From an uncultured Bacteroidota bacterium (GTDB lineage Bacteria > Bacteroidota > Bacteroidia > 2-12-FULL-35-15): a DNA stretch of 64,000 nt. The position numbers were made by a program, and so were the translations under genes. The notes under the pieces were generated by a model, which saw only the letters and a list, made by a program, of their open reading frames with translations, was not told where the DNA came from and made no database searches. The DNA lies in contig CAIYIS010000015.1 of NCBI GenBank assembly GCA_903926385.1, positions 1-64,000 on the forward strand, read 5' to 3'. The stretch's first letter is position 1, and the number at the start of each line of letters is the position of its first letter. Of this stretch, positions 14,785 through 25,109 are shown in pieces.

Positions 14785-15207
14785 TTAATTAAAGTGGAAA
14801 AAGAAAAACACTACAGCTGCATAAGCTTTAGGAATTCCGCTTGCACTGCCAATACTGCTTCCGGAACTGTTACGAACAGTACCATCTGATTCGATTTTAC
14901 CAATACTACTTCCCGATTCATTTCTTACAGTTCCGTCAGATTCTATCTTTCCAACGCTGCTTCCTGAACCATTGCGAATGGTTCCGTCTGAATCTATTTT
15001 ACCAATACTGCTTCCAGAAGAATTACGAATGGTTCCATCCGAATCTATCTTGCCCACACTGCTTCCGGAACTATTGCGGATTGTGCCATTTGATTCAATT
15101 TTCCCGGTACTGCTTCCACTCGAACTTCTTATATCCTGAGCTTTTAAATTAGTTACGCCAATGAATAACACAAACGATAACAATAAACTTGTTGTAATTT
15201 TTTTCAT
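14785..15207 (-). CDS. Secreted protein with 17-residue Ser-Gly repeats (beta-flower-like)
   Basis: The 140-residue precursor has a signal peptide ending in LKAQ, using ATG 15207. The mature part is six repeats of about 17 residues, each of the form NSSGSS(I/V)GKI(D/E)SDGT(I/V)R. The C-terminus is hydrophobic (AYAAVVFFFFHFN). The pattern fits the 5-fold beta-flower protein type seen in Bacteroidota as I remember it, in which each repeat makes a small beta blade. The function is unknown. It stands alone between the M61 gene and the patatin gene. Confidence 0.75.
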   Translation of the reverse strand: MKKITTSLLLSFVLFIGVTNLKAQDIRSSSGSSTGKIESNGTIRNSSGSSVGKIDSDGTIRNSSGSSIGKIDSDGTIRNGSGSSVGKIESDGTVRNESGSSIGKIESDGTVRNSSGSSIGSASGIPKAYAAVVFFFFHFN

Positions 15208-15297: not shown

Positions 15298-17595
15298 CTA
15301 ATCGAGTGCTCTTCTATTAAACATTATATATCCGAAGTGAAATAAAAAGGTAAAAGGAGTCGTCACCTGATCATAATAATTAACACCAAGGCTTAGTGGT
15401 CCGACAGGAGTAGTCCAAACAATAGCACTTGTTCCAATGTAATGCTGCAAAGTAAATGGTAGAGTATAATCAGTTTTGTTATCGGCTGTTTTAACAAGAG
15501 TTTGTACCGGTTGAAAAATATAAGCTTCTGCTCGAATTTCAACATTCTTGCGAATATTAAAAACCAGTTTTATTCCCCCAGCTAAATATTGTTGAGCTCG
15601 GTAGTTTTCAAGAAAGACAGTTTTACTATCAGGGGTTGGCTGAAAGGCCGGACAGGATAAAATAGACGAAGTGTAATTATGAAAGAGTGTTTGAGTAGAA
15701 TAAGCTCCCTCGCCAAACAGCCCGACTTTAAACGAACCTCTTCGGTTAAAATACCGTTCAGCTTTAAATTTTAAAACTAACCATTCATGATGTTTGGTGA
15801 AATTAGAATCAGTAATGGCGGCAGTTGAACCTGGAGTGTTCGTTTCCATGCCGTTTACATAGCGTACTTTCAAGTTCAAATATTCACCCTGATTAGCATA
15901 TTGCTTTCTGTTCAGTGAATTAATTTCGTAATAGGCTTGTGCGGTGAATGCATCAAAATCGGTACGGTCAGCAGTATCGCGTTCGGTGAAGTTAGAATTC
16001 TGATAATACTTGTCAGTAATTCTAGCACCTCCTGCACCTGTTACAATGCGGCCTTTACGACCTGTAGGAAAACCGATGTTCAAGTCACCATATTCTTCCG
16101 ACTGCAACAAATATAAAGGACGAATGTCTTTTGTAAATGCATTGGATGATTTATAATAATCCCAATGGTTCCAGGTAAAATTAGGCTCAATATACATAGG
16201 CGTTTTAAAAGGGAAATCGATACGTGCTTTTACTTGAGCCGAACTGTAAAGTTTTCCAAAATACCCATTCGCCATAAGGCTAGTTGCAATAGCTCCAAGG
16301 TAATTATACTTTATGCCTAAGTATCCTTCTGAAATAGGTCGGTTAGAAAAGTCGCCTCCGAAATCTGTAATAATATTTCTTTCTTTCTTTACTCTTAGAT
16401 ATAAATCGTAGAAACCAGTTAGAGGGTTAAACGTAGCCTTCGGATAAATATACTTAATTTTATTATCTGCAGATAACCGGAAATAGCCTTCCTTAATATC
16501 CTTGAGCGAAATTTTATCCTTTTTATGGCGCAAGATTTTCATTGCATACTCTTCCTGTTTCCAATTCAGTCCTTCAAAATAAATATTATCGAAAACAATT
16601 TCAGGTTGTTTTGCTTTAAATTTTGCACGTTTGGTATTTATTGCATCAGGGGCAACTCTGCGTTCGGTGTAGAGTTTAATCATTTCCATCTGTCGCATAG
16701 CCGAAGCATAACCACTATCGATTAGCGGTTGCACATTTTTAAAATTAAATAATGCAACATCTGTTTTAGGTTCTATAACAATACCGTTTTCGCACTGAAC
16801 TTTAAAATCGGATTTACTCTGAAGCATACTTTTTATTTGCGAAAGGATATTGTCTTCATCGGGAGGTGGGTTATTCGCACTCACATTCGAACCAATAATA
16901 AAGTCGGGATAAAAATCATCATACATTACATTAGATGGAAAATTATTATATAATCCACCATCGAATAATAGTTTTCCATCCACTAAGATAGGTCTAATGT
17001 AAAATGGATATGACATGGAAGCTCGCACCGCCTGAGCTAAATCGCCTTTTCTAAATATAACAGATTCTTTTTTCTCTATATCCGAAGCCACACATCGAAA
17101 TGGTATAAACAAACTGTCAAAATTATATCCTGCCGCTGCTGCTGCAGGGCCAGCTAGTTCCATCATCCCGAAATCCATAGCAATTGGTGAAATTACGTTG
17201 GTGGGCAATGTTCGAAGTATTGTTGAATCAAAAAGTCTAAGAGTTATCCAAGATGCATCATCATCTCCGCGTTTGAAATAGTATGCATATTTCACATCAA
17301 TCATTCCTTCCGACATATTCCGAAATTGCTCAGTTTTTACTATGCCTTCTATTTGAGTTGGCGAAAATCCCATAGCATACAAACTGCCCACCAGAGCGCC
17401 CATAGAAGTTCCGGTTATGAAATCAATCGGAATGTGATTTTCTTCGAGAGCTTTGAGAACACCAATATGTGCCATGCCGCTTGCAGCACCGCCACTAAGA
17501 ACTACTCCCACCTTTTGGGCTTGAGTATTCAAATTGGCAAACAAAAACACCGCCAGTAACAATAAAGACAGGAATGTATGTTTTGTAATGTTCAT
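15298..17595 (-). CDS. Patatin-like phospholipase fused to an outer membrane beta barrel
   Basis: The 765-residue precursor begins with a signal peptide ending in NTQAQ. The patatin domain follows: oxyanion region SGGAASGMAHIGVL, nucleophile S64 in GTSMG, and the aspartate in DGGLYNN. The oxyanion loop reads GGAASG, with Ala where the third Gly is usual. After about residue 340 comes a POTRA-like segment (EIVFDNIYFEGL...) and then a beta-barrel region to the end, ending in GYIMFNRRALD. This is the PlpD (type Vd) plan, in which the barrel carries or displays the lipase at the outer membrane. Nothing around it suggests an operon. Confidence 0.92.
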   Translation of the reverse strand: MNITKHTFLSLLLLAVFLFANLNTQAQKVGVVLSGGAASGMAHIGVLKALEENHIPIDFITGTSMGALVGSLYAMGFSPTQIEGIVKTEQFRNMSEGMIDVKYAYYFKRGDDDASWITLRLFDSTILRTLPTNVISPIAMDFGMMELAGPAAAAAGYNFDSLFIPFRCVASDIEKKESVIFRKGDLAQAVRASMSYPFYIRPILVDGKLLFDGGLYNNFPSNVMYDDFYPDFIIGSNVSANNPPPDEDNILSQIKSMLQSKSDFKVQCENGIVIEPKTDVALFNFKNVQPLIDSGYASAMRQMEMIKLYTERRVAPDAINTKRAKFKAKQPEIVFDNIYFEGLNWKQEEYAMKILRHKKDKISLKDIKEGYFRLSADNKIKYIYPKATFNPLTGFYDLYLRVKKERNIITDFGGDFSNRPISEGYLGIKYNYLGAIATSLMANGYFGKLYSSAQVKARIDFPFKTPMYIEPNFTWNHWDYYKSSNAFTKDIRPLYLLQSEEYGDLNIGFPTGRKGRIVTGAGGARITDKYYQNSNFTERDTADRTDFDAFTAQAYYEINSLNRKQYANQGEYLNLKVRYVNGMETNTPGSTAAITDSNFTKHHEWLVLKFKAERYFNRRGSFKVGLFGEGAYSTQTLFHNYTSSILSCPAFQPTPDSKTVFLENYRAQQYLAGGIKLVFNIRKNVEIRAEAYIFQPVQTLVKTADNKTDYTLPFTLQHYIGTSAIVWTTPVGPLSLGVNYYDQVTTPFTFLFHFGYIMFNRRALD

Positions 17596-17666: not shown

Positions 17667-18458
17667 TCACATTACTGTTTGAATAAGTCCGGTATAATAG
17701 TCAGGTGCTTTCAATAGTCGTGAACCATACCAAGAAAACAATTCCCCATCTACTAATACAATCTTTGCTTCTGGACAAATGGATTGGAACTGTTGAATGT
17801 GTTTTTCAGAAAAAGGAAATGGTTCGGAAGAAAGAAAAATTACCTGAGGATTAGCCTTGGTGATCTGCTCTGCGCTTACTTCAGGATAACGCATATTTAC
17901 TTCAGATGCGAATACATTTATCAAACCACATCGGGTAAGCATATCATCAATAAAGGTATTTCGGGCTGCTACCATAAAAGGGTTTTGCCAGATAAAATAA
18001 GCAATTTTAATCTGCGATGCCTCGCGTGTTGCAAATTGATTAAACAAAAACTCTATTTCCAGCTTAAGGTTTATTCCTTCCTTGTTTTTACCTACCAATG
18101 CTCCAACGTATACCATCATTGTGAAAGCATCTTTGAGGTTATTACAATCACTCATCCATACGTTATAATGTTTAGACAATTCCTCAATTTGTTGCTGATC
18201 GTTCTCTTCTTTGTTTCCAATAATTAAATCAGGATTCAATTCTTTTATTTTTTCGAAATCAATCGTTTTTGTCCCACCCACCTTTGTCTTGCTCTCATAC
18301 CATTCCTTTGGATGAATACAAAATTTGGTTATTCCAATCACTTCGTTTCTTAATCCTAAATCATAAAGCAATTCAGTTTGCGAAGGCACAAGCGAGATAA
18401 TTCGTTTGGGTGTTTCTGCAAGCTCCACTTTTCGGCCTAACTGGTCGGTGTAAATCAT
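17667..18458 (-). CDS. BtuF-like helical-backbone metal receptor without signal peptide
   Basis: The 263-residue protein has the fold pattern of cobalamin or siderophore binding proteins: RIISLVPSQTELLYDLGL, VGGTKTIDFEKIKELNPDLII and IAYFIWQNPFMVAARNTFIDDML. No signal peptide or lipobox precedes the fold; it begins MIYTDQLGRKVEL. A periplasmic solute-binding role would need export, so a cytoplasmic role is possible. It starts 3 bases after the stop of the SNF2 helicase, so it is in the same transcript. No ABC permease is nearby. Such signal-less copies occur in Bacteroidota. Confidence 0.85.
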   Translation of the reverse strand: MIYTDQLGRKVELAETPKRIISLVPSQTELLYDLGLRNEVIGITKFCIHPKEWYESKTKVGGTKTIDFEKIKELNPDLIIGNKEENDQQQIEELSKHYNVWMSDCNNLKDAFTMMVYVGALVGKNKEGINLKLEIEFLFNQFATREASQIKIAYFIWQNPFMVAARNTFIDDMLTRCGLINVFASEVNMRYPEVSAEQITKANPQVIFLSSEPFPFSEKHIQQFQSICPEAKIVLVDGELFSWYGSRLLKAPDYYTGLIQTVM

Positions 18459-18461
18459 AAA

Positions 18462-20987
18462 TTATTTTTGTTTGTTGGTTTGAATAAATTCCGGAAGCTT
18501 GTTACCATCTATTAATTCGATTTTATGTGTGCCGGCATAAGTTATCGCTTCTTTGCTAAACTCCCCGTTGCTTATCAATATGGCTTTTCCAATTCTTTTG
18601 TTCAGTAAGAGTAGTTGGTGGAGTTTTTTTAACTGTGGTAATTGCACTGTCTCCAAGGCATTATCCTGCCACAAGGATTGAATAACTACTTCTATAATAC
18701 TTGCAGAGGTGATTCGTTTGGCTGACATAAACACACCTCCTTCGTAACTTCTTTTATGGTGATTGAGATGATATCCCGACTTTGATAACAAATCGGAAAC
18801 GAAATTTTCAAACTTCTTTTCATCCATGCCGTGAAAATTGCTTGAAACAGGATGTTCAGTTAGTGTAGCAGAACTTCTCCTTTTTTTCAATCCAAACAAT
18901 CCGAAAATTTCCTCTTCCGACATTAATTTATCAAGATTAATTTCCTCGCTCAGTTCGTCCACCACCACATTGAATAAACTTTTCTTCGACTCCAGGATAT
19001 CAAATATTCTTCGCTCTATGGTATCTTCAGCAAGTAGCATGGTTTCAAAAACAGTTTTATCCTGTCCGATGCGGTGAGCTCTTCCAGCCGCCTGTGACGA
19101 AATAGAAGGGTTCCACCACAAATCAAAATGAAAAACATAATTAGCTCGTGTCAGTGTAATTCCCGAATTACCGGCCTTAAGTGAAAGTAGCATTATTTTA
19201 TTCTCCGTATTATTTACATCTTGAAACTGGCGCACCATAACCTCCCGCTGACTTAAGTTGAGTTGACCATGATAATACAAAGGATTAAATTCTTTCAAAT
19301 GTGGTAAAAGTGGTTCCAGTGTTTTTTTCGGAAACTGAGAAAAGATTAAGGCCTTATCGCCCTGCGATGTGAGTTCTTCCAGTTTTTCTTTCAGATAATC
19401 CAGTTTCGAACTCTCTTGTGTTTCCGGGTCAATATTGCAGAGCTGTTTTAATTTTGTTATCAATGCAAAAACGTGTTGAATCGTAGCCTCGTTTCCTTTT
19501 CCTTCCAAATCGAGCACCCCTGTTGCTTCTGCATGGTCGTACTTCCTTCTTTGACTTGGCGAGAGTTCCAGCCACTCATAATGTTGCTGTATGGGTTGCA
19601 AATCTTTCAGCACATCATCTTTTTTTCTTCTGATAAAATTAGCTCGATAGGTATCTATCACATCTTGTGTGCTCGTTTTGTTTTTATCCTTAAACATATC
19701 TGCATTCAAAGTTTCGCACACGGTCACCAAATCTTTCAATTTGTTTTCCATCGGAGTGCCCGAAAGGGCCCATCTGTGTTTGGCATACACCACCCTCACA
19801 GCCTTTGTCATTTTCGTTTTCGGATTTTTTGTTTTTTGAATCTCATCAAATATCAACACATCAAAATGCGTTCTCGCTCTGTCATCTTTGAGCGGATAGA
19901 AAAATGTATGACCACATTTCGGACACGCTACTTCTGAATAATGCAATTCAAAAGGCACATCTATTTCTCCTTCACATTCCGGAACCGGGCAATAAAAATG
20001 ATGTCCATGCTCATCCACTTTCAATCTTTTTAATTCAATCGTTTTCTCCAAATCTTTTTGCAACGATTCGTATACGCAGATATAGATATGTGCCCCTGTG
20101 CTCCACAATATTTTTCTGAATTCAGGGCTTCCCTCTAGTTTCAATGCTTTCAGTTCTGGAGCCCATCTGCACAATTCGTTATACCAGTTGGTGAGTAAGG
20201 CTTTTGGACAAACAATACAACACGAAGTAATCTTTCCTGTTGTAAACAGTACTTTTAAAGCTACTATTGCTTGAATTGTTTTGCCCAGCCCCATTTCGTC
20301 TCCTAATAACGCTGCTGGGTTTTCGAGTAAAAATTCTATTCCTTCGGGCTGAAATGCTAGTAATGGTCGCGGAAAAACAATGGGGTTATCAAAGTTTTTT
20401 CCGAGTGGGGGCTGTAGAGCCGGAAATATTAAATCAAAAACATCAAATTCATCAAACCTGTTTTCTTTCTTGTATTGTACCTTGATGCTTGGTTTTTCAA
20501 ATTCATCATTTTCTTCTGTCTCGACTTGTTCTTCCTCAGGTATGGCCTTCTCTCTTGTCTTCCTAAATTTGGGTTCTTCTTTTTCTTTTGGTTTTTCTCT
20601 TATATAAATCTTTCCCTTTATCAATGGCTTTTTAAATTGTACCGCAAAATTTTCTATTGCAGGAAACAGGTCAAGTGTATCCTGTATGTTTCCCAAATCA
20701 TGCACAGTAACCGTATCGAATGTAAAACCCACAATTGAATTTTCTCCTATTTCTGTTTCAAACAATACAGGAAAGTTGCTTATGGTAAGCGATTGGGGAG
20801 AGTAACAGTAATTCTGACTGATGGTAATATCCGGAAAGCCCAGATTACTGAATGACTTAAAGCCAAGCGGAGGAAGGTAGAAATCCACTTCGCCCAGGGA
20901 GGCTGTGCTTTTTTCTTTCACAGGAACCAGCTTCTTGGCGATGCTCAATTTGGTTTTCTGAAAAAACGAAAGCTTATAATCGGTCAT
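18462..20987 (-). CDS. SNF2-family helicase with zinc ribbon and degenerate Mrr-like domain
   Basis: The 841-residue protein has an N-terminal region of about 215 residues that I do not recognise. The SNF2 motor follows, with motif I GDEMGLGKT at 229-237, DEIQ at 381-384, SGTPMEN at 409-415 and QAAGRAHRIGQ near 633-643. A four-cysteine ribbon (C333, C338, C355, C358) is inserted before motif II. The C-terminus (about 722-841) resembles an Mrr-type restriction nuclease, but the usual GGVD reads GGVF (F753) and the QxK step reads Q770-S-L772, so cleavage is unlikely. It lies between a 183-residue partner and a BtuF-like gene with 2-3 base gaps. Confidence 0.93.
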   Translation of the reverse strand: MTDYKLSFFQKTKLSIAKKLVPVKEKSTASLGEVDFYLPPLGFKSFSNLGFPDITISQNYCYSPQSLTISNFPVLFETEIGENSIVGFTFDTVTVHDLGNIQDTLDLFPAIENFAVQFKKPLIKGKIYIREKPKEKEEPKFRKTREKAIPEEEQVETEENDEFEKPSIKVQYKKENRFDEFDVFDLIFPALQPPLGKNFDNPIVFPRPLLAFQPEGIEFLLENPAALLGDEMGLGKTIQAIVALKVLFTTGKITSCCIVCPKALLTNWYNELCRWAPELKALKLEGSPEFRKILWSTGAHIYICVYESLQKDLEKTIELKRLKVDEHGHHFYCPVPECEGEIDVPFELHYSEVACPKCGHTFFYPLKDDRARTHFDVLIFDEIQKTKNPKTKMTKAVRVVYAKHRWALSGTPMENKLKDLVTVCETLNADMFKDKNKTSTQDVIDTYRANFIRRKKDDVLKDLQPIQQHYEWLELSPSQRRKYDHAEATGVLDLEGKGNEATIQHVFALITKLKQLCNIDPETQESSKLDYLKEKLEELTSQGDKALIFSQFPKKTLEPLLPHLKEFNPLYYHGQLNLSQREVMVRQFQDVNNTENKIMLLSLKAGNSGITLTRANYVFHFDLWWNPSISSQAAGRAHRIGQDKTVFETMLLAEDTIERRIFDILESKKSLFNVVVDELSEEINLDKLMSEEEIFGLFGLKKRRSSATLTEHPVSSNFHGMDEKKFENFVSDLLSKSGYHLNHHKRSYEGGVFMSAKRITSASIIEVVIQSLWQDNALETVQLPQLKKLHQLLLLNKRIGKAILISNGEFSKEAITYAGTHKIELIDGNKLPEFIQTNKQK

Positions 20988-20989
20988 TG

Positions 20990-21541
20990 TTATTTGAATT
21001 TCTGATCGGTTTTGCCCAATATCTCTACCGATTTTTTCATCCGTTCAAACGGTTCTGTTAGGTCGAAATTTTCGAAAACAGTTTTTACTGATTCGCTTGT
21101 GTTCTTAACATCCTTCGGAAAGTCGGGATTGTAGCTTATTTCCACCGGTTCAAATGTATTGTATTCATGAGCTAAAATTATTTTCCCTTCCGATGTTTCT
21201 CCTGTTTTCTGTTCTTCATCTTTTTGTTCCGCTTTGTTTATAAGCACCACAGCGGTATTTACTTTAGTCCGCATCGACAGTAGATAAGGTGCATTTACAA
21301 ACAAGAAATCAGGAACATTAATTACTGATTTCATAAGCGGCACACCGCACAACTCAATGCCTATGTAAGGTTGCAGTCGTTCTCCATAAAGTGCTCTCTG
21401 AATTGCAGTGGCCTTTACCGAATGTGTGCATTTAAATTCGAGAGGAATTCCGTAACTGTCGGTTATTAGCAGTGTACCAACAAAACTGTCTTTGGTGTCG
21501 GTTTCGTATAGCGAGTAGAAACCTATTTTTAATTTTGACAT
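20990..21541 (-). CDS. Unknown protein coupled to the SNF2 helicase
   Basis: I do not recognise a family for this 183-residue soluble protein. It starts at ATG 21541 (MSKLKIGFYSLYETDTKDSFVG) and its stop lies 2 bases before the helicase start, which strongly implies translational coupling. The first 100 residues look like a compact alpha/beta domain (LLITDSYGIPLEFKCTHSVKATAIQRALYG, LCGVPLM). A charged linker (EQKDEEQKTGE) follows, then a helical tail. Its job is probably tied to the helicase. The linkage is seen in the sequence; the role is inference. Confidence 0.78.
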   Translation of the reverse strand: MSKLKIGFYSLYETDTKDSFVGTLLITDSYGIPLEFKCTHSVKATAIQRALYGERLQPYIGIELCGVPLMKSVINVPDFLFVNAPYLLSMRTKVNTAVVLINKAEQKDEEQKTGETSEGKIILAHEYNTFEPVEISYNPDFPKDVKNTSESVKTVFENFDLTEPFERMKKSVEILGKTDQKFK

Positions 21542-21712
21542 GAGGCTACAATTAATTGTGTTTATTAATCCTAATTCTCTATAATGCAAAATTAAGAAAT
21601 AATAAACTACAAGATGTTGCCTTCTTGGTAATTATTTTTTTTTGAAATCTTTTAAATATTCAGGAAACGTATTTGTTTTGACTTATCAAATACGTTTCCT
21701 TAAAAATTTCAC

Positions 21713-23089
21713 CTATTTAGTGAGGGCATTAATTATATCGTGACGGGTGATGATATAAGTATTATCCAATTTGAAATCGCGAACCAAAACTGCCGGATTG
21801 GTATCTGTAATCATAGCCGAAAGCGAATCGATAGGAGCCGAAATATCTACAAACGGGAATGCAGGTTGCATTATGGTTTCCACTTTATTGTTTTTTATCT
21901 CCGGATTAGCCACCACTTTTGCATACAACAAACTTTCGTTCAACGAACCCACAATACGTTTATCTGTCGTAACCGGAATTTGCGATATATCCATTTTGCT
22001 CATTACCTTAACGGCATTGCCAATCGTATCCGAACTTTCGATGGTAATCAGTTTGCCATTGGTGTTATTGTTTACCAAATCTTTTGCTACCAAGCCCTGT
22101 TTATCAAAAAATCCTTTTTCCATCATCCAGTCGTTATTAAACATTTTGCCTAAATAACGAGTTCCATGGTCGTGAAAAATAACCACCACCACATCTCCTT
22201 CTTTCAGTTCGTTTTTCAGCTGAATCAATCCTGCCATAGCCGAACCTGCCGAGTTACCTGCAAAAATCCCTTCCTGCTTGGTAATTTCTCTTGTCATGAT
22301 GGCTGCATCTTTATCCGTTACTTTTTCAAAACGGTCGATGATATTAAAATCAACATTAGCTGGCAAAAAATCTTCCCCAATTCCTTCGGTTATGTATGGG
22401 TATATTTCATTTTTATCAAATATTCCGGTTTCCTTGTATTTCTTAAAAACCGAACCGTATGTATCAATTCCCCATATTTTCACATTCGGATTTTTTTCTT
22501 TCAGGTAGCGCCCGGTTCCGCATATCGTTCCTCCTGTGCCCACTCCCACTACGAGATGGGTTATTTTACCTTCCGTTTGTTCCCATATTTCGGGGCCGGT
22601 TTGTTCGTAATGTGCCTGAGAGTTGCTCAAGTTGTCGTATTGATTCGGTTTCCACGAATTCGGAATCTCTGCCACCAGGCGTGACGACACCGAATAATAC
22701 GAACGTGGGTCTTCTGGGTCAACATCCGTAGGACATACAATAACATCCGCACCAAACGCCCTCAATGCATCCACTTTTTCTTTCGATTGTTTATCGGTTG
22801 TTGTAAAAATACAATTGTATCCTTTAATAATAGCCGCTATAGCCAGCCCCATTCCTGTGTTTCCGCTCGTACCTTCTATTATGGTTCCGCCCGGTTTCAA
22901 ACGTCCGTCTTTCTCCGCATCTTCTATCATTTTCAAAGCCATTCGGTCTTTAATGGAATTGCCGGGGTTAAACGTTTCCACCTTTGCATACACTGTTGCC
23001 TTTAAATCTTTGGTCAAATTATTTATACGAACCAATGGAGTATTTCCTATCGTTTCTAAAATATTGTTGCTTGCTTTTCTGAATGTCAT
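21713..23089 (-). CDS. PLP-dependent cystathionine beta-synthase / cysteine synthase with CBS pair
   Basis: The 458-residue enzyme belongs to the fold type II PLP family. The PLP lysine is K47 in NPGNSIKDRM, and the phosphate loop is GTSGNTG at 73-79. A second glycine loop reads GVGTGGTI. The C-terminal 120 residues form two CBS domains (ESSDTIGNAVKVMSKMDISQIPV and VDISAPIDSLSAMI). Cystathionine beta-synthase from serine and homocysteine is the most likely reaction, with cysteine synthase the alternative. The CBS pair probably regulates it by a nucleotide ligand. It is monocistronic with a TATTTTTG box at 23137-23144. Confidence 0.93.
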   Translation of the reverse strand: MTFRKASNNILETIGNTPLVRINNLTKDLKATVYAKVETFNPGNSIKDRMALKMIEDAEKDGRLKPGGTIIEGTSGNTGMGLAIAAIIKGYNCIFTTTDKQSKEKVDALRAFGADVIVCPTDVDPEDPRSYYSVSSRLVAEIPNSWKPNQYDNLSNSQAHYEQTGPEIWEQTEGKITHLVVGVGTGGTICGTGRYLKEKNPNVKIWGIDTYGSVFKKYKETGIFDKNEIYPYITEGIGEDFLPANVDFNIIDRFEKVTDKDAAIMTREITKQEGIFAGNSAGSAMAGLIQLKNELKEGDVVVVIFHDHGTRYLGKMFNNDWMMEKGFFDKQGLVAKDLVNNNTNGKLITIESSDTIGNAVKVMSKMDISQIPVTTDKRIVGSLNESLLYAKVVANPEIKNNKVETIMQPAFPFVDISAPIDSLSAMITDTNPAVLVRDFKLDNTYIITRHDIINALTK

Positions 23090-24416: not shown

Positions 24417-24689
24417 AAAGTATCCTTTAAATTATTCTGCCAAATTACAATTTTTCGGGAAATGAAGTTTAAGGTTGGAAAGTTTAAGGTAGGAAAGTTT
24501 TGGTTCATCATTGCGATGGCAGGAAAGCTAACTTTATACTATTACTTCCTCCTCACCGTTACGTTTCGCCTCCTCACTTGTGGAAGGTAATTTTGACCGC
24601 ACTATATATTATAGTATGAAATGGAAGGAGGGAAAATGGAGATTTAGGGTTAAAAGGAAGGAAATGGGAAAAAACTGAACAGTGAAAAA

Positions 24690-25105
24690 AAACGTCAGTC
24701 TAAGAAAAAAACAGCCAGTCTGAGAAAAAAACAAGCAGTCTGAGAAAAAAACAGGCAGTACAGAGAAAAAGAAGAGTACAAAAACACGATCGTACGCTAT
24801 CAAACTACAATCGAAAGCTATCAAATAAGACTCGAAAGGCAGTACAATGAAAAAGAACGCTATCAAATGACAATCGAAAGCTATCAAATAAGACTTGAAA
24901 GGCGGTACAAGGAAAAAGAACGCTATCAAATGACAATCGAAAGCTATCAAATAAGACTTGAAAGGCGGTATAAGGGAAAAGAACGCTATCAGATGACAAT
25001 CGAAAGCAGTCAGAATGCAATCGAAAACTATCAAATAAGACTTGAAAGGCAGTACAAGGAAAATGAATGCTATCAGATGACAATCGAAAGCTATTAAATA
25101 ACAAT
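24690..25105. repeat. 21-bp tandem array with 63-bp higher-order unit
   Basis: Recurrent words GCTATCAAAT, GACAATCGAAAG and AGACTTGAAAGG recur at a mean of 21 bases. From 24796 the GCTATC start points fall at 24796, 24859, 24922 and 24985, exactly 63 bases apart, with sub-steps of 21, 22 and 20. One extra 21-base unit is inserted near 25006-25027, after which the 63-base step resumes (25069). The upstream part (24696-24760) is a related 20-base series of CAGTCT words. No gene is supported in the 24417-25618 gap. Confidence 0.88.
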
Positions 25106-25109
25106 CGAA

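What the first reader, a model, noticed from the sequence alone, without database searches (positions are those of the whole stretch)
18462..21541. SNF2 helicase with a dead Mrr-like domain, coupled to an unknown protein
The helicase combines an unknown N-terminus, a zinc ribbon inserted before motif II and a C-terminal Mrr-like fold in which D becomes F753 and K becomes L772. A small unknown protein is coupled with a 2-base gap. A DNA-binding but not cutting Mrr domain could sense modified DNA. Defence is one possibility, but there are no neighbouring defence genes.
Basis: partly seen in the sequence, partly recalled or inferred. Interest (0 to 1): 0.5.

Follow-up and report, generated by a model that had tools for sequence, protein, structure and literature searches.

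The report
Conserved SNF2 protein–small protein pair
This is a pair of neighbouring bacterial genes, one for a DNA-tracking SNF2 motor whose attached DNA-cutting domain is dead and one for a small protein of an undescribed family, that stayed together in every relative examined, even where the motor has lost its own active site, which suggests the two work as one DNA-bound unit that neither cuts nor always needs to move.

Summary
In detail: an intact SNF2 ATPase with a four-cysteine insert before motif II and a C-terminal Mrr-like domain lacking its catalytic D (F753) and K (L772), 2 bases behind a small protein without a credible family match. The pair is real and old. All 7 carriers among 36 genomes of the genus keep both genes with the same 2-base gap. 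All 40 carriers found in a second class of the phylum also have the small gene directly before a SNF2-like gene. In family f80, 34 of 80 genomes have the large gene: 32 with the small gene, and two whose partial large gene near a contig start cannot be judged. No aligned large protein (0 of 41) has the full Mrr triad. In the second class motif VI is lost in 37 of 37 complete proteins, so the motor itself is dead there. In the genus, carriers form one side of a supported branch and 14 of 23 non-carrier loci show the site empty. The small protein has no relative in the plasmid, phage or viral collections, and ten neighbours scanned hold no defence genes. I favour a two-subunit DNA-bound complex with a chromosomal role over restriction. 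Defence by sensing is not excluded.

The parts
20990..21541 (-). small protein, 183 aa, first gene of the pair; family without a credible Pfam, NCBIfam, PADLOC or PHROGs match; core T-D-x(4)-P-[LVI]-E-F-[KR] ... Q-x(2)-L-Y-G
18462..20987 (-). SNF2-family ATPase with C-terminal Mrr-like domain, 841 aa, second gene of the pair
20277..20303 (-). motif I GDEMGLGKT (residues 229-237), intact in the window clade
19902..19994 (-). four-cysteine insert (residues 332-362; C333, C338, C355, C358), seen only in the window clade
19836..19847 (-). motif II DEIQ (residues 381-384)
19062..19094 (-). motif VI QAAGRAHRIGQ (residues 632-642); GRxxR lost in all 37 complete second-class partners
18474..18836 (-). 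Mrr-like PD-(D/E)xK-fold domain (residues 718-838), catalytic D and K replaced (F753, L772)
17667..18458 (-). BtuF-like periplasmic-binding-fold gene, 3 bases after the SNF2 gene; found in 35 of 36 genus genomes, with or without the pair; context, not part of the module
15298..17595 (-). patatin-like gene, conserved downstream neighbour in the genus; context
21713..23089 (-). cystathionine beta-synthase-like gene, upstream neighbour in 5 of 7 carriers; context (491.5 bits against a TIGR01137 cut-off of 510.25)
21654..21708 (.). inverted repeat (22-nt arms, 86% complementary, 11-nt spacer) between the upstream gene and the pair, possibly its terminator; the consensus scan did not call it one

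Best explanation
The two genes make one DNA-bound complex. The large protein wraps duplex DNA through its SNF2 core and grips it with a Mrr-like fold that can no longer cut. In the window's clade ATP lets it track along or strip proteins from DNA, in the manner of RapA- or Mot1-type SNF2 proteins (Mot1 recalled, not from a call). The small protein is its obligate adaptor, deciding where the complex sits or which protein it acts on. The constant output is binding and placement, not cleavage, because a second class keeps the pair after the ATPase site decayed. The role is probably a chromosomal one (transcription, nucleoid or repair). Shown: pairing, close spacing, purifying selection, dead nuclease site, intact ATPase motifs here, lost ATPase motifs there. 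Inferred: complex formation, DNA binding, adaptor role, type of process.
For: Pair kept in 47 of 47 carriers: 7 genus members, gap 2 bases each (window, others), and 40 second-class members, gap -37 to +28. In f80 the large gene occurs in 34 of 80 genomes at E<=1e-59, 32 of them with the small gene; in the other two (G933, G939) only part of the large gene is there, close to the contig start, and the gene in front cannot be judged. Neighbours differ while the pair stays (10 loci). GRxxR of motif VI kept in 7 of 7 window-clade and 0 of 37 complete second-class proteins. Mrr triad complete in 0 of 41 at the aligned site. dN/dS for the least diverged pair of genomes: large gene 0.034, Mrr domain 0.068, small gene 0.019. 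Site empty in 14 of 23 non-carrier loci and carriers on one side of a 98/92 branch. No relatives of the small protein in plasmids, phages or viral contigs. Precedents: inactive REase domain in the housekeeping SNF2 protein RapA and in BrxHII (PMC12839542, section 27 read); PriA as a pseudohelicase that still binds DNA and its partner (PMC4504706, abstract read).
Against: No direct evidence of complex formation or DNA binding. The small protein's model failed (pLDDT 36.7). Distribution is patchy and the large protein diverges fast (16-23% identity between classes), as in defence systems. 3 complete second-class proteins have no aligned Mrr-like region, so that domain is not essential everywhere. 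PADLOC's best hits are defence helicases, mainly over the shared SNF2 core, but two ZorD models also span the Mrr-like part. The trees of the pair and of the neighbouring BtuF-like protein place the window genome differently, so descent within the genus is not a perfect match.
Confidence: 0.5

Rival explanations
1. A two-gene anti-phage system: the large protein senses foreign or damaged DNA with its SNF2 core and dead Mrr domain, and the small protein is the effector, as HamB and HamA do in Hachiman.
For: Patchy presence (7 of 36, 32 of 80, 7 of 79), site empty in 14 of 23 non-carrier loci and filled by another gene in 3, architecture similar to type I ZorD (two PADLOC ZorD models span the Mrr-like part too, 373-839 and 432-836), and Hachiman's make-up of a helicase plus a formerly unknown partner (PMC12278908, abstract). 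Inactive REases next to NTPases are read as sensors in defence (PMC12839542, section 27).
Against: No defence genes among 10 neighbours scanned in the window, nor among 10 second-class neighbours scanned with Pfam. No HamA or other credible PADLOC hit for the small family, 14 members. No mobile copy of the small protein found. Constant within some genera (6 of 6 g152, 6 of 6 g201). Motor motifs lost in all second-class carriers that could be judged.
Confidence: 0.3
2. An ordinary SNF2 helicase that happens to sit behind an unrelated gene; the dead Mrr domain is a decaying remnant without function.
For: Mrr-like region not found in 3 complete second-class proteins; SNF2 + Mrr fusions are known (ZorD).
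Against: 47 of 47 pairings across two classes with changing outer neighbours; Mrr domain dN/dS 0.07 in the least diverged pair of genomes and 46 invariant columns of 132 in 7 genomes.
Confidence: 0.1
3. A modification-dependent restriction enzyme in which the small protein supplies the missing catalytic residues.
For: The fold resembles MspJI and AspBHI; the small protein has D28, E35 and K43 in 14 of 14.
Against: The small protein's D28 to E35 spacing is short, and residue 37 is K in the 4 window-clade but R in the 10 second-class members aligned; no credible nuclease family hit. Only weak sequence arguments either way.
Confidence: 0.05

Closest known systems
RapA (HepA), RNA-polymerase-associated Swi2/Snf2 ATPase
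   Same: SNF2 core followed by a degenerate restriction-nuclease-like domain (PMC12839542, section 27); housekeeping role
   Different: NCBIfam PRK04914 46.1 bits against a cut-off of 576; here the dead domain is Mrr-like and C-terminal; constant small partner; four-cysteine insert
BrxHII (type 3 BREX helicase)
   Same: SNF2 core plus inactive REase domain
   Different: no PADLOC hit, so no BREX gene, in 10 neighbours; no small partner of this kind mentioned in the section read
ZorD (type I Zorya)
   Same: SNF2 helicase with a Mrr-like domain
   Different: 114 bits against an NCBIfam cut-off of 1500; no ZorA, ZorB or ZorC hit in 10 neighbours; catalytic residues missing here
Hachiman HamAB
   Same: two genes, a helicase plus a protein of formerly unknown function (abstract)
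   Different: small protein has no HamA hit in PADLOC
Deinococcus PriA pseudohelicase
   Same: helicase kept for DNA and partner binding after loss of helicase motifs (PMC4504706 abstract)
   Different: PriA, not SNF2; partner is DnaB, not a small protein of this kind

Membership tests
SNF2 family ATPase (window protein) | two RecA lobes with motifs I, II, III and VI (GKT, DExx, SGTP, QxxGRxxRxGQ) | tested here: met
   PF00176 7e-38, PF00271 7.9e-22; motifs intact in 7 of 7 genus members
SNF2 family ATPase (second-class partners) | intact motifs I and VI | tested here: not met
   GRxxR of motif VI in 0 of 37 complete proteins; GK[TS] in 10 of 40 rows (L150 ends before the motif)
Mrr_cat / type IV restriction endonuclease | Mrr-like fold | tested here: met
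   PF04471 2.4e-14; model matches 1y88, AspBHI, MspJI
Mrr_cat / type IV restriction endonuclease | catalytic D...[E/Q]xK | tested here: not met
   0 of 41 rows at the aligned site, by eye; a loose pattern count gave 4 of 34 second-class rows, which I read as an earlier D plus an E-x-K in the hairpin turn, off the site
ZorD, type I Zorya | NCBIfam equivalog score over its cut-off | tested here: not met
   114 against 1500 bits
ZorD, type I Zorya | ZorA, ZorB and ZorC alongside | tested here: not met
   0 PADLOC families at E<=1e-10 in 10 neighbours
RapA | NCBIfam equivalog score over its cut-off | tested here: not met
   46.1 against 576 bits
RapA | binds RNA polymerase and is activated by it | not testable with these tools
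   needs biochemistry
Hachiman | HamA (DUF1837) next to HamB | tested here: not met
   small protein: no DUF1837 in Pfam and no HamA in PADLOC
DISARM DrmD / Dpd DpdE | NCBIfam equivalog score over its cut-off | tested here: not met
   75.4 against 610 and 61.5 against 500 bits

The most novel reading that the evidence does not exclude
An undescribed, obligate two-gene module of one bacterial phylum: a new small-protein family plus a SNF2 partner that is a live motor in one lineage and a pseudo-ATPase throughout another, always with a dead nuclease fold where that domain is kept. The selected function would then be DNA-bound scaffolding set by the small protein, with ATP-driven movement an optional extra.
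Probability: 0.55. Interest if true: 0.65.

Novelty: new variant of a known kind. Interest (0 to 1): 0.5.

Why it matters
SNF2 proteins are defined by their motor. A lineage-wide loss of the motor with the partner gene kept would be a natural separation of the motor role from the binding role, and gives both states to compare. The small protein founds a family with no credible match in the four libraries searched and sits next to its partner in all 47 carriers examined, so it offers a direct handle on what the complex does.

Tried and rejected
Structure of the small protein: AlphaFold with 7 close sequences gave pLDDT 36.7, not interpreted. The large protein's model was poor outside residues ~711-840 and short stretches of the core (mean pLDDT 37.9); its N-terminal fold stays unknown.

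Sequence search of the Mrr-like alignment against the PDB gave nothing credible; likewise the small family. Weak small-family hits in NCBIfam, PADLOC and PHROGs (best E 0.0029, at most 3 of 14 members for any one family) and in Pfam (best 0.019) were treated as chance. Three phylum hits at E 0.0015-0.007 and one at 0.0098 were dropped as partial matches and not counted as carriers.

Consensus promoter and terminator scans gave about as many sites as shuffles. A PD-ExK reading of the small protein's D28/E35/K37 was considered and not adopted.

A loose regular expression for the Mrr triad hit 4 of 34 second-class rows. By the sequences these hits use an upstream D and an E-x-K in the hairpin turn, so I do not count them as an intact site.

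Other phyla could not be searched with the family profile. The one whole-collection scan used patterns so close to the genus that it did not see even the second class, so absence elsewhere is not claimed. Papers: six text searches listed no paper on this pair; they cover open papers only. The Halomonas Snf2-nuclease paper cited in PMC11890865 was not held.

Full report
What is there. The window (64 kb of a 77-kb contig of a 4.27-Mb genome; six relatives of the pair in named records are all 'Bacteroidetes bacterium' MAGs) holds, on the minus strand, a 183-aa gene (ATG at 21541, stop ending at 20990) and, 2 bases on, an 841-aa gene (18462-20987). The large protein has an intact SNF2 core and a C-terminal Mrr_cat match. 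Between motif Ib and motif II lies an insert with four cysteines, invariant in 7 of 7 genus members. A second Mrr domain elsewhere in the same genome reads GID...VVQVK and lies beside a gene that looks like a type I methylase (the methylase is my reading of the sequence). Against it, this domain reads GVF...VIQSL. Structure prediction gave a usable model mainly for the C-terminal part, and that part fell on restriction-endonuclease folds (1y88 Z 13.6, AspBHI 12.1, MspJI 10.5, FokI 10.3). So the nuclease fold is real and its site is dead.

The genus. The order holds one genus with 36 genomes in the collection. The small protein is in 7 of 36 and the full-length large protein in the same 7; four further matches of the large protein, in three non-carriers and one carrier, cover the SNF2 core only. 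In all 7 the gap is 2 bases (window; six others). BtuF-like and patatin genes follow in 7 of 7. The cystathionine beta-synthase-like gene precedes in 5 of 7, counting the window itself; it was not found in the fetched stretches L012 and L013, the latter beginning 4.4 kb before the pair. The BtuF-like gene is in 35 of 36 genomes. Loci were given for 30 of these 35, 23 of them non-carriers. In 14 of the 23 the cystathionine beta-synthase-like and BtuF-like genes are neighbours without the pair; in 3 another gene lies between them (two 386-codon ORFs, one of 230 codons); in 6 the upstream gene is not in view. A tree of the BtuF-like protein puts the 7 carriers on one side of a 98/92 branch (30 rows). 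One gain, or one loss on the other side, followed by descent is the simplest reading. Against a clean story, the window genome groups with G034, G011 and G013 in the BtuF-like tree (94/89) but with G026, G004 and G014 in the tree of the pair (100/100; both drawn with midpoint roots).

A second class. A profile of the small family found ten relatives at E 4e-18 to 1.5e-26 outside own class, among 392 genomes of the phylum; all ten came back in a search of the class of one of them, where 15 of 293 genomes match a broader profile. Repeating the phylum search with the broader profile (394 genomes) added no third group. By family, f80 has 32 of 80 and f62 has 7 of 79, which with one f91 genome makes 40 carriers. 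In own class only own-genus genomes match, 4 of 396. Classes carry no names in this tool. In all 40 the next gene is the large partner: 15 of 15 and 25 of 25 (three partners are cut by a contig end). The reverse largely holds. In f80 the large gene is found at E<=1e-59 in 34 genomes, of which 32 have the small gene. In G933 the large gene runs off the contig start; in G939 only its later two thirds are recognisable, starting about 0.6 kb from the contig start, with no small gene in those bases; neither can be judged. Four more genomes, and a second place in carrier G938, match at 1e-40 to 1e-43 over the SNF2 core only, in ~1100-aa frames that I take for other SNF2 helicases. In ten carriers compared gene by gene the outer neighbours differ, apart from a shared FeoB/Fur block in f80 members.

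The motor dies, the pair stays. In a 47-row alignment the window clade keeps every SNF2 motif shown (7 of 7). Among the second-class partners the GRxxR of motif VI is gone in 37 of 37 rows that reach it. GK[TS] of motif I survives in 10 of 40 rows and DE of motif II in 20 of 40; L150 ends before motif I, and L146, L150 and L163 end before motif II. The D-x-W-W segment just before motif VI, or a near form of it, is kept in 35 of the same 37 rows, so the alignment is in register there. The four-cysteine insert is absent from the 15 second-class proteins compared. The Mrr-like region aligns in 41 of 47 rows. Seven second-class rows keep the D, several keep a K, and by eye none has D with [E/Q]xK at the aligned site; three complete second-class proteins have no aligned region at all. 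A loose pattern count gave 4 of 34 second-class rows, explained under Tried and rejected. A short basic, probably helical N-terminal segment seems to recur in both classes by eye.

Selection. For the least diverged pair of genomes (G013, G011) dN/dS is 0.034 for the large gene, 0.016 for the SNF2 core, 0.068 for the dead Mrr domain and 0.019 for the small gene; the other four comparisons are mostly near or beyond saturation at synonymous sites. The dead domain is therefore maintained in this clade, on the evidence of that one comparison and of 46 invariant columns of 132.

Mobility and defence. The small protein has no match in plasmids or phages at E<=0.01, a second-class member none in plasmids at E<=1, and the profile none in viral contigs. 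The large protein matches 293 plasmid and 15 phage records, none over 80% of its length in one place; the rows listed cover the SNF2 core at about 27-32% identity. PADLOC finds nothing at E<=1e-10 in ten neighbours. Its hits to the large protein are ZorD, DpdE, DrmD and others, mainly over the core; two ZorD models reach across the Mrr-like part (best 25 of 47 families shown).

Reading. The constant features are the pair, its order and its close spacing. The variable features are the ATPase motifs, the cysteine insert and even the Mrr-like domain. A part that can lose its motor and yet be kept with its partner is best seen as a DNA-bound scaffold, with the small protein as the specific element. 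RapA shows that a housekeeping SNF2 protein can carry a dead nuclease fold, and BrxHII that a defence one can (PMC12839542, section 27 read and other passages seen). PriA of Deinococcus shows that a helicase can be kept as a pseudohelicase (PMC4504706, abstract read). I therefore put a chromosomal, non-restriction role first (0.5) and sensing-type defence second (0.3).

Limits. No interaction or DNA binding has been shown. Motif loss is judged from alignments at 16-23% identity to the window protein.

Noticed in passing
L008:11783-12449 (G026, about 1.7 kb upstream of the pair, beyond the cystathionine beta-synthase-like gene): A CRISPR-like array: 10 units at an exact 66-base spacing, with a ~36-nt repeat and ~30-nt variable spacers. 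The 37-base form occurs only in L008 and L014 (same contig) of the 166 loci then held, and a 33-base form not in the window at up to 3 mismatches. I recognised no cas gene among the ORFs of 120 aa or more in the 18-kb stretch (by eye).
   Followed up: partly
window 24686-25109: Tandem repeats (20-bp and 63/84-bp units) in the gap beside the OmpA-like gene, open in several frames; a different 21/63-bp array lies at a similar place in L008 12668-12884.
   Followed up: no
window 14847-15118: 51/102-bp repeat inside a Bflower_2 (5-fold beta-flower) protein gene.
   Followed up: no
L093:307-1467, L100:320-1480 and L092:796-1488: In three non-carrier genomes of the genus a gene of another kind (386, 386 and 230 codons) occupies the same site between the cystathionine beta-synthase-like and BtuF-like genes, so the site has taken different inserts.
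   Followed up: no
L076 (G000:C23, reverse strand, 1-1686 of the locus): A second Mrr-like protein of the same genome with an apparently intact D...QVK, next to what looks like a type I methylase gene.
   Followed up: partly
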